A DNA stretch of 64,000 bases from Phycisphaerales bacterium. Its GTDB lineage: Bacteria; Planctomycetota; Phycisphaerae; Phycisphaerales; UBA1924. The notes beneath the pieces are model-generated. The model saw nothing but the letters and a program-made list of their open reading frames with translations. It searched no databases and was not told where the DNA came from. Positions 59,974 through 62,678 of this stretch are shown one piece after another (position 1 is the first letter of the stretch; each line of letters opens with the position of its first letter). The position numbers were made by a program, and so were the translations under genes. The stretch covers positions 310,001 through 374,000 of the forward strand of contig JAJDDC010000070.1 of the NCBI GenBank assembly GCA_029260515.1, read 5' to 3'.

Positions 59974-61431
59974 ATGAGCGACCCCGATCGCAAGACGTGG
60001 GACGGTATTGTTGCGCACTTGCGTTCCTCGCACCCGGTGGTTTGCCGCCAATGGTTCCGCGAGCTCGAGCCCCTCGGGGTCGCCTCGGGCTCGTACGGCA
60101 TCCGCGCGCACTCCTCGCTGCACAAGAACTACCTGCGGCGCGAGTGCCTCGAGGCGTTCAACGACGCCGTCCGCTCGGTGACGGGCCAGCTCATCGGCGT
60201 CCGCTTCCTGGGGCCCGACGACGACGCGTCCACCTTCGAACGCCCGCGCCGCCGCAAGACCGCGCCCAAGAGCGCCAAGGCCGACGCCGCCTCCGACCCG
60301 CAGCCCTCCACGCATGCGCCCGAAGCCCGCACGCCCGCGAGGCACGACGAGACGACGTTTTCAGAGTCCATCCCCGCCGATTATCCGGACGCGCTGCCCA
60401 TCAACCCGGACTTCGGGTTCGACACGTTTGTGATCGGGCCCAACAACGAGCTGGCCCAGGCCGCGGCGCTCGCCGTCAGCGCCAAGCCCGGTCGGGCGTA
60501 CAACCCGCTGTTCATCCACGGCGACGTGGGGTTGGGCAAGACGCACCTGCTCCAGGCTGTTTGCCTCAAGGTCAAGCACAACCGCCCGGACGCGAAGGTC
60601 GTCTATATCTCCTGCGACGGGTTCATGAGCCAGTTCATGGCCGCGGTCCAGGACGGGTCGATGAGCGAGTTCCGCCACCGCTTCCGCGACGTGGACCTGC
60701 TGGTCATCGACGACATCCACTTCCTGGCCAAGCGGGACCGGACCCAGGAAGAGTTCTTCCACACATTCAACGCGCTGTACCAGAACAACCGCCAGATCAT
60801 CCTCAGCTCGGACACGCCGCCCGAGGAGATCCCGCACCTCGAGGACCGGCTCGTGTCGCGCTTCAAGTGGGGCCTGGTCGCGAAGGTGGACGCGCCGGGG
60901 TACGAGACGCGGATCGAGATCCTCCGCGCGAAGGCCGAGCTGCGGGGCGTCGAGCTGACCGACGACGTGCTGTGCTACATCGCCCAGCACATCGACACGA
61001 ACATCCGAGAACTCGAGGGCGCGATCACCACCCTGCAGATGCGCGCCAGCGTCGAGAAGCGCGACGCGGATCTCGAGTTGGCCCAGGACTGCCTGGCCGA
61101 GCTGGGCGCCGCCCCCGCCTCCGACGGCCCGACGATCGAGTCGATCATCGCCGCGGTCAGCGACTTCTACTCGGTCCGCAAGGCCGACCTGCTCGGCAAG
61201 CGGCGCCACAAGTCGATCTCGCTGCCCCGCCAGGTCTCGATGTACCTGGCCCGCGAGCACACGAGGCACTCGCTCGAGGAGATCGGCAACCACTTCGGCG
61301 GGCGCGACCACACGACGGTCATGCACGCCGTCCGCACCGTCAAGGCCCGCCGAGGGGGCGACAACGATTTCGAGGCCGTCGTCCGCTCGCTCGAGCAGCA
61401 GGTCCGACGACGCCGCCCGGGCCGCGACTGA
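59974..61431 (+). CDS. dnaA: Chromosomal replication initiator DnaA
   Basis: This AAA+ ATPase binds DnaA boxes and melts oriC (485 aa). Domain I is at 1-80 ([13 protein letters not shown], atypical but positionally right), then comes a variable Ala/Pro-rich linker (85-130). Domain III has Walker [10 protein letters not shown] and Walker [11 protein letters not shown], sensor LSSDTPP and arginine-finger region RLVSRFKWG. Domain IV has the DNA-binding signature in [20 protein letters not shown]. It is not followed by dnaN. The downstream intergenic region carries two consensus DnaA boxes. Confidence 0.98.
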
Positions 61432-61777
61432 GGCCTCCCGCCCCGCCCCCCACGCGGGGGACATCCTGTGGAAAACTCGTCGCCCACCGTCGCCAGCGCT
61501 CGCGCCGCACCGCGTACCGCCGTCGCCGCATCCGCGCCCGCCGAGCGACCGAGCGCCAGCGCCTTCTGACGACCGCGAGCCGACAGGTTGTCGCGGGCGG
61601 TGCCGCAATCTAAACAACGGCGGGATATGTGGTTACAAGCTGTGACCCCGGGTTCTCCCCAACCGACGCCCGCAATTCCTGGTGATGATGAACTCTCTTC
61701 TCTCCAAGAAGAAGAGGAAAGACAAACTCGGGGCCCTGTCGCCTGATCGCCCGTGCATCCGGGCGAGCGAACACCCC

Positions 61778-61786
61778 TGTGGATAA
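61778..61786 (-). promoter_or_regulatory. DnaA box 1
   Basis: Reads TGTGGATAA on the top strand, the exact complement of the consensus TTATCCACA. It is 12 bases from box 2 in the same orientation. Confidence 0.8.
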
Positions 61787-61789
61787 GCC

Positions 61790-61798
61790 TGTGGATAA
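61790..61798 (-). promoter_or_regulatory. DnaA box 2
   Basis: A second exact TTATCCACA complement, ending two bases before the mutM stop codon. The 12-base period places both boxes roughly one helical turn apart. Confidence 0.8.
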
Positions 61799-61799
61799 G

Positions 61800-62678
61800 T
61801 CATGCCTGGCAGGCGTTGCACCAGACGCTCGTGCGTTGGCCCACGAGCGCCGAGGCGAGCGGCGACCCGCAGGCATGGCAGGGGAGCCCGGCACGCCCGT
61901 AGACGCTGTGGGCGAGCTGGAAGGCGCCCGGGTCGCCGTCGGCGTCTCGGTAGTCGCGGAGGGTCGAGCCACGGGCCCTGACCGCCCGGGCGAGCACGCC
62001 GCGGATCGCGCGGGCCAGGCGGGTGGTCTCTGTGCGAGTCAACGACTCGGCCGGCCTTCGCGGGTCGATGTCAGACCCAAACAGCGCCTCGTCGGCGTAG
62101 ATGTTCCCGACGCCCGCGATCGCGCGTTGGTCCAGCAGCGCCGCCTTGACCGGGCGGCGCGACCGGGCCAGCGCCCGCCCGAGCTGTGCCGACGTCACAG
62201 CCAGCGCGTCCGGGCCCAGCGCGTCCCAGCGGGCGAGGCGGAGATTGTCCATGCCCGGGAACGACCAGAGGCCACCGAAGCGGCGTGGATCGCGGAAGAC
62301 CAGGCGCGAGCCGTCGTCCAGGCGCCAGTGTGCGTGGACGTGGTCGGCGCGCTCGAGCCGCTTCCCCGGCGCCCGCCAGAGCAGCGCCCCGCTCATACCC
62401 AGGTGGACGCACAGCACGCGCCCCGAGGCGCCGACGATCGCGAGTTGCTTGCCATGCCGGAGCACCCCATCGACGCGGTCGCCCCCGAGCAGATCCGCCG
62501 CCCGGACGCGCCGGAACCGCGGCGCCGCCCCGCGGGCAGATCGTGAGAACCCGCCGGGCGGGTCGCCCGGAACGACGAGCATGTCGCGCCGCTTGATCGT
62601 TGCCCGCTCGATCACGCGCCCGAGAAGCCGCGTTTGCAGGGTTGTGCGGACGGTCTCGACCTCGGGCAGCTCGGGCAT
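61800..62678 (-). CDS. mutM: Formamidopyrimidine-DNA glycosylase
   Basis: MutM/Fpg excises 8-oxoguanine and cleaves the AP site (292 aa). It begins PELPEVETV (after Met removal Pro is the nucleophile, Glu the acid). It also has the conserved Lys of HGKQLAI, a helix-two-turn-helix region (AIAGVGNIYADEALF) and a C-terminal zinc finger (CHACGSPLASA to WCNACQA). The start at 62678 is fixed by the N-terminal Pro requirement. It follows tadA by 8 bases and ends at the DnaA boxes. Confidence 0.97.
   Translation of the reverse strand: MPELPEVETVRTTLQTRLLGRVIERATIKRRDMLVVPGDPPGGFSRSARGAAPRFRRVRAADLLGGDRVDGVLRHGKQLAIVGASGRVLCVHLGMSGALLWRAPGKRLERADHVHAHWRLDDGSRLVFRDPRRFGGLWSFPGMDNLRLARWDALGPDALAVTSAQLGRALARSRRPVKAALLDQRAIAGVGNIYADEALFGSDIDPRRPAESLTRTETTRLARAIRGVLARAVRARGSTLRDYRDADGDPGAFQLAHSVYGRAGLPCHACGSPLASALVGQRTSVWCNACQA

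What the first reader, a model, noticed from the sequence alone, without database searches (positions are those of the whole stretch)
61432..61799. Candidate oriC between convergent dnaA and mutM
Two perfect TTATCCACA boxes 12 bases apart, a near-box and an AT-richer stretch occur in the only gene-free region beside dnaA. By eye, top-strand lines are C-rich through much of 41-61 kb and turn G-rich after 61.8 kb, although mutM and the TVP38 gene are both leftward. This is the skew change expected at an origin.
Basis: partly seen in the sequence, partly recalled or inferred. Interest (0 to 1): 0.6.

Follow-up and report, generated by a model that had tools for sequence, protein, structure and literature searches.

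The report
DnaA-trio replication origin beside dnaA
The stretch between dnaA and mutM is very probably where this Phycisphaerales bacterium opens its chromosome for copying, built like the known Bacillus origin, but the strand-composition switch that normally marks an origin lies 73 kb away at the chromosome-partition site, a mismatch that recurs across the family.

Summary
The boxes are real: two exact TTATCCACA 12 bp apart plus TTTTCCACA in 61432-61799, over 100-fold above the local rate (P ~1e-6). The region is very probably oriC. A conserved core (window ~61578-61721: DnaA box, GC-rich spacer, DnaA-trio-like triplets, AT dip) recurs in 34 of 40 Phycisphaerales genomes, usually just 3' of dnaA. 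The model, built from Phycisphaerales only, also hits the region right after dnaA in five Bacillaceae, box to box and triplets to DnaA-trios. In a one-contig relative dnaA lies over 1 Mb away, yet the element stays 72 kb from parB; four others keep it beside mutM without dnaA. So it is an origin-domain locus, not a dnaA control site.

Skew does not turn G-rich after 61.8 kb; it stays mostly negative for 73 kb, then reverses sharply (-0.21 to +0.26) at parB and the assembly's only two parS matches. Several other genera also reverse at parB, with only a small step at the element. Synonymous-site skew flips in both gene orientations, so the reversal looks replicational. Why polarity turns at parS is unexplained. 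No replication was measured.

The parts
59974..61431 (+). dnaA (DnaA1, 485 aa: AAA+ ATPase and DnaA C-terminal helix-turn-helix)
   Evidence: Pfam PF00308 E 3.5e-67, PF08299 E 1.7e-29
61432..61799 (.). oriC candidate: gene-free region between convergent dnaA and mutM
61467..61475 (-). dnaA-proximal DnaA box TTTTCCACA (1 mismatch); the family often has a pair here
61580..61592 (+). conserved CCGACAGGTTGTC motif at the start of the core (CGACAGGTT in most relatives)
   Evidence: alignment A1
61578..61721 (+). conserved origin core
   Evidence: profile trained without the window: best hit in 254 kb of the contig, C70:371580-371715, 14.3 bits, E 0.029; model R1, which includes this copy: C70:371578-371721
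61653..61661 (+). BUS-type DnaA box TTCTCCCCA (2 mismatches; commonest form in relatives TTGTCCACA)
61662..61675 (+). 14-nt GC-rich spacer / degenerate second box (ACCGACGCCCGCAA; relatives CCGACAG, Bacillaceae TCCACAG)
61676..61690 (+). DnaA-trio-like triplets TTC CTG GTG ATG ATG (complementary strand 3'-NAN-5', 5 in a row)
   Evidence: rule from PMC8287927
61778..61786 (-). exact DnaA box, first of the mutM-side pair
61790..61798 (-). exact DnaA box, second of the pair; one base from the mutM stop; paired spacing kept in two congeners with degenerate boxes
61800..62678 (-). mutM; stays beside the core in four relatives in which the core has left dnaA
   Evidence: Pfam

Best explanation
61432-61799 is the chromosomal origin of replication (oriC) of a Phycisphaerales bacterium. 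DnaA would bind the flanking boxes (61467, 61778, 61790) and the core box at 61653, load as an ATP filament across the short GC-rich spacer onto the triplets at 61676-61690, and open the duplex next to the AT dip and pyrimidine-rich stretch, where helicase is loaded. Shown here: the boxes, the conserved core, its match to the Bacillaceae element, and its linkage to parB. Inferred from B. subtilis work (PMC6669920, PMC10721633): DnaA binding, filament loading, unwinding, initiation. parB/parS lies 73 kb away in the same origin domain. That strand polarity turns at parS and not here is not explained by this model.
For: (1) Box density in the 550 bp 3' of dnaA is 2.83/kb against 0.10/kb elsewhere over 27 loci. 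(2) A 145-bp profile trained on 13 genera without the window finds the window copy and copies in other families, all within 0.9 kb 3' of dnaA. (3) Genome-wide, 34 of 40 order genomes hold it at E<=0.001, 14 of them outside the training set, nearly always at one strong place; seven further public records carry it just 3' of dnaA. (4) The model hits the region right after dnaA in five Bacillaceae (E 1.3e-4 to 2.2e-3), aligning their TTATCCACA, spacer and CTACTACTATTACTA-like triplets with the core box, spacer and triplets. (5) The window copy meets the published BUS rule: box with 2 mismatches, 14-nt spacer, 5 consecutive triplets. (6) The element is separable from dnaA: beside mutM but away from dnaA in G008, G018, G020 (weak hit) and G022; in one-contig genome G070 it is 72 kb from parB while dnaA is about 1.2 Mb away, in G052 75 kb against 990 kb. 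(7) In all 20 genomes where core and parB share a contig they lie 6-157 kb apart. (8) A small upward skew step at the element in 18 of 20 genomes.
Against: The main skew reversal is at parB/parS, 73 kb away, and recurs there in several genera. The window copy is weak: 14.3 bits against 40-67 in trained genera, and its core box and triplets have drifted. Some relatives' core boxes have 3-4 mismatches. No core was found in G023, G038 or G039. No replication or binding data.
Confidence: 0.8

Rival explanations
1. The main initiation site is at parB/parS (C70 ~445 kb), as the skew says; the dnaA-mutM element is an ancestral or secondary unwinding site kept for occasional or regulatory use.
For: Skew flips within about 1 kb of both parS sites and 73 kb from the core; clear steps at parB in G004, G006, G012, G015, G019, G021, G022 and, outside the family, G038; both gene orientations flip; the window's core is degenerate.
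Against: No DnaA-box cluster or core copy near parB; the flip lies in a tight divergent gene pair without a large intergenic gap; the core is conserved over the order; in other families the parB step is mostly absent.
Confidence: 0.12
2. The element is a DnaA titration or dnaA autoregulation site (datA- or DARS-like) and not an origin.
For: Adjacent to dnaA in the window and in most relatives.
Against: It separates from dnaA by about 1 Mb yet keeps parB linkage; it carries box-spacer-triplet anatomy matching the Bacillaceae unwinding region.
Confidence: 0.05
3. Initiation is at the element (as in the best explanation), and the skew step at parS is a fossil of an earlier origin position next to parS. 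This is an add-on to the best explanation, not an alternative to it.
For: Small up-step at the element and a large one at parS; core-parB distance varies from 6 to 157 kb.
Against: Needs separate, recent relocations from the same spot in several genera; an inversion that carries the origin keeps polarity consistent, so only translocation would do this.
Confidence: 0.25
4. Ordinary spacer/terminator between convergent genes with boxes by chance.
For: A CTCTTCT..AGAAGAG inverted repeat near 61694-61715 (sequence).
Against: Box excess P ~1e-6 and 28-fold enrichment across relatives; core conserved when the neighbours change.
Confidence: 0.01

Closest known systems
Basal unwinding system (BUS) of Bacillus subtilis oriC (PMC6669920, PMC8287927, PMC10721633)
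   Same: DnaA box, short GC-rich spacer with a second degenerate box, DnaA-trio-like triplets, AT-rich stretch; directly 3' of dnaA; model R1 aligns five other Bacillaceae with it position by position.
   Different: The neighbour is mutM; few boxes; in the window the core box has 2 mismatches and the triplets are not the GAT consensus; in some relatives the element has left dnaA.
Putative double origins at dnaA and parB, Dehalobacter sp. CF (Gao 2015, PMC4403523)
   Same: A dnaA-side candidate and a parB-side skew switch on one chromosome (the parB-side candidate there is at about 150 kb).
   Different: There both sites carry at least 3 DnaA boxes; here none were found on the parB side. In both cases initiation at two sites is unproven.
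Origin-proximal parS sites next to parB (general bacterial pattern, own knowledge)
   Same: Two parS-like sites beside the parB 5' end, in the origin domain.
   Different: Here the strand polarity switch sits at parS itself and not at the DnaA unwinding element.

Membership tests
bacterial oriC, BUS type | Cluster of DnaA boxes above chance | tested here: met
   3 boxes in 332 bp, P ~1e-6; 28-fold enrichment across 27 loci
bacterial oriC, BUS type | Box (<=2 mismatches) + spacer <=16 nt + at least 3 triplets 3'-NAN-5' | tested here: met
   TTCTCCCCA, 14-nt spacer, 5 triplets; several relatives have 3-4 box mismatches or fewer than 3 such triplets
bacterial oriC, BUS type | Sequence match to an experimentally studied kind of unwinding region | tested here: met
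   R1 hits the region after dnaA of 5 Bacillaceae, E 1.3e-4 to 2.2e-3 in 74 kb; B. subtilis itself was not in the set
bacterial oriC, BUS type | Conserved in relatives, one strong copy | tested here: met
   missing in G023, G038, G039
bacterial oriC, BUS type | AT-rich unwinding stretch | tested here: met
   44% GC bin against about 70% background; a dip recurs in many relatives
bacterial oriC, BUS type | GC-skew minimum at the site (a correlate, not strictly defining) | tested here: not met
   minimum in 280-534 kb at C70:444,981, 73 kb away; step at the site only +0.05
bacterial oriC, BUS type | Origin domain: linked to parB/parS | tested here: met
   6-157 kb in all 20 genomes with both on one contig, even when dnaA is about 1 Mb away
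bacterial oriC, BUS type | Replication starts here (marker frequency, autonomous replication, DnaA footprint) | not testable with these tools
   no reads or experiments available
DnaA titration / dnaA autoregulation site | Position tied to dnaA | tested here: not met
   element separates from dnaA in several genera but stays near mutM or parB

The most novel reading that the evidence does not exclude
These chromosomes use two or more initiation sites: the DnaA unwinding element near dnaA/mutM and a stronger site without recognisable DnaA boxes at parB/parS (some relatives show further sharp reversals). This would explain why the sampled strand-polarity steps are sharp upward and only gradual downward, as between multiple origins.
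Probability: 0.13. Interest if true: 0.85.

Novelty: new member of a known kind. Interest (0 to 1): 0.5.

Why it matters
It gives a concrete, conserved oriC element for a mostly uncultured planctomycete order and suggests that the box-spacer-trio unwinding module extends from Bacillaceae to Phycisphaerales. It also exposes a testable conflict: the DnaA unwinding site and the strand-polarity switch are separated by tens of kb in several genera, the switch sitting at parS. If real, skew-based origin calling and coverage-based growth-rate estimates would be biased in this group, and what sets fork polarity near parS becomes an open question.

Tried and rejected
Skew flip as a transcription effect: rejected, synonymous skew flips in both gene orientations wherever both could be scored at 17 steps. 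Inversions as the cause: 12 sharp up-steps >=0.3 against no down-step of that size at 4 kb and 2 at 6 kb, but sampling was centred on dnaA, parB and the core. An origin element at parB: no box cluster, core copy or conserved intergenic sequence found. Rfam on two 20-kb stretches, one holding the flip: nothing. Literature on planctomycete origins: nothing specific found in the searches made.

Full report
What is there. The window lies at C70:310001-374000 of a 3.83-Mb, 113-contig assembly; its relatives by DnaA are Phycisphaerales/Phycisphaerae MAGs. dnaA (59974-61431, +) and mutM (61800-62678, -) converge on a 368-bp gene-free region with TTTTCCACA at 61467 and two exact boxes at 61778 and 61790. 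Against 15 boxes with <=1 mismatch in 254 kb, three in 368 bp has P 1.7e-6. Only six exact boxes exist in the assembly and this is the only close pair.

The skew claim fails. Inside the window skew is negative from 26 to 62 kb and about zero at 62-64 kb. Beyond the window it is near zero for about 20 kb, then strongly negative to C70:444 kb, and reverses from -0.21 to +0.26 within about 4 kb; the minimum of the 254 kb read in full is at 444,981. That is between parB (443,626-444,636; Pfam ParB domains) and its divergent neighbour, on top of the only two places in the assembly that match a parS-type pattern, 444,996 and 445,848.

Is that peculiar to this assembly? In the window's family, steps over +-8 kb at parB were +0.38 (G000), +0.40, +0.28, +0.25, +0.18, +0.17, +0.43 and +0.56 (G004, G012, G015, G019, G006, G021, G022); G008, G011, G014 and G017 had weak steps of +0.07 to +0.11. 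At the dnaA/mutM-side element steps were small (+0.05 to +0.12 in most) but positive in 18 of 20 genomes of all families. In other families parB shows little step except in G038, and G026 steps at the element. So in this family the main polarity switch tends to track parB, although the element is 6-80 kb away in these genomes. At all 17 reversals examined, four-fold-degenerate skew changes sign in both + and - genes wherever both could be scored: strand polarity, not transcription.

The element. Orienting 27 relatives on dnaA, box density in the 550 bp past dnaA is 2.83/kb against 0.10/kb elsewhere. Alignment shows paired boxes after the dnaA stop, CGACAGGTT, GTAA, an AT dip, TTGTCCACAaCCGACAG, a triplet repeat such as CTTACTACTACGACTACGAG, pyrimidine-rich DNA, and a last box by mutM. 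A profile trained without the window finds one strong copy per genome near dnaA, other families included, and the window copy as the best hit in its contig stretch, though weakly (14.3 bits, E 0.029). A genome-wide model (20 training sequences, window included) finds it in 34 of 40 genomes at E<=0.001, 14 of them untrained. It recurs in seven public records outside training and less often across the class: 33 of 120.

Identity. The same model hits the region immediately after dnaA in five Bacillaceae, aligning for example TTATCCACAAATCCACAGTGCCTATTACTTCTATTACTA with the core box, spacer and triplets. This is the layout of the B. subtilis basal unwinding system (PMC6669920). The window copy meets the published search rule (PMC8287927): box TTCTCCCCA with 2 mismatches, 14-nt spacer, five consecutive triplets with the middle adenine on the complementary strand. 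The triplets are not the GAT consensus, several relatives keep a period-3 A on the top strand better than the canonical middle adenine, and the window's genus has drifted further.

Independence from dnaA. In G008, G018, G020 (weak hit) and G022 the core has left dnaA but sits beside mutM; in G021 it has left both. In one-contig relative G070 the core is at 3.12 Mb, parB at 3.19 Mb and dnaA at 0.70 Mb; G052 is alike (core hits of 27-30 bits). Wherever core and parB share a contig (20 genomes) they are 6-157 kb apart. This is what an origin domain should look like and not what a dnaA control element should look like.

Reading. The element is oriC with confidence 0.8. The displacement of the polarity switch to parS is unresolved. 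Options: initiation really at parS, a fossil skew, or two initiation sites. In sampled stretches there were 12 sharp up-steps >=0.3 and no down-step of that size at 4 kb (two at 6 kb), with two or three up-steps on one contig in G014 and G036. That pattern resembles multiple origins, but sampling was centred on suspected origins and these are mostly draft assemblies, so it stays a lead. Putative dnaA/parB double origins have been proposed before (Dehalobacter, PMC4403523). The 73-kb gap is 1.9% of the genome, inside the usual agreement between skew and oriC (PMC8941118).

Noticed in passing
L132:8485-10314 (+), G000:C95 about 138.5-140.3 kb: A second DnaA paralog (609 aa from the first TTG, 31% identity to DnaA1 over 330 aa, with ATPase and DnaA C-terminal domains); nearly every genome of the order searched has both types. 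Its signature reads RNHSTV instead of RDHTTV, so its box may differ.
   Followed up: partly
G036:C18 (645, 712, 765 kb); G014:C1 (635, 729 kb); G021 and G022 (two contigs each): Several sharp replication-type skew up-steps in one genome with no equally sharp down-steps at 4 kb; resembles multiple initiation zones.
   Followed up: partly
L137, G019:C22:235969 and 235981: Another pair of exact TTATCCACA boxes 12 bp apart, in an AT-rich island (37-45% GC against about 68%), 68 kb from dnaA and without the conserved core.
   Followed up: no
C70:438.8-446.1 kb (L123): Conserved neighbourhood clpB - small gene - helix-turn-helix gene - parB, divergent from a NUDIX gene and a histidine kinase, at the polarity switch in many family members.
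   Followed up: partly
L123:7911-8604 (C70 about 441.9-442.6 kb): Roughly 700 bp with no convincing gene near the polarity switch; no Rfam match.
   Followed up: no
window 1-26000: Local block of positive skew (up to +0.21 at 16-18 kb) inside an otherwise negative arm, followed by a gradual decline.
   Followed up: no
G070:C1 and G052:C2: dnaA lies about 1 Mb away from the origin element in this genus, while the element keeps its 72-75 kb distance to parB.
   Followed up: partly
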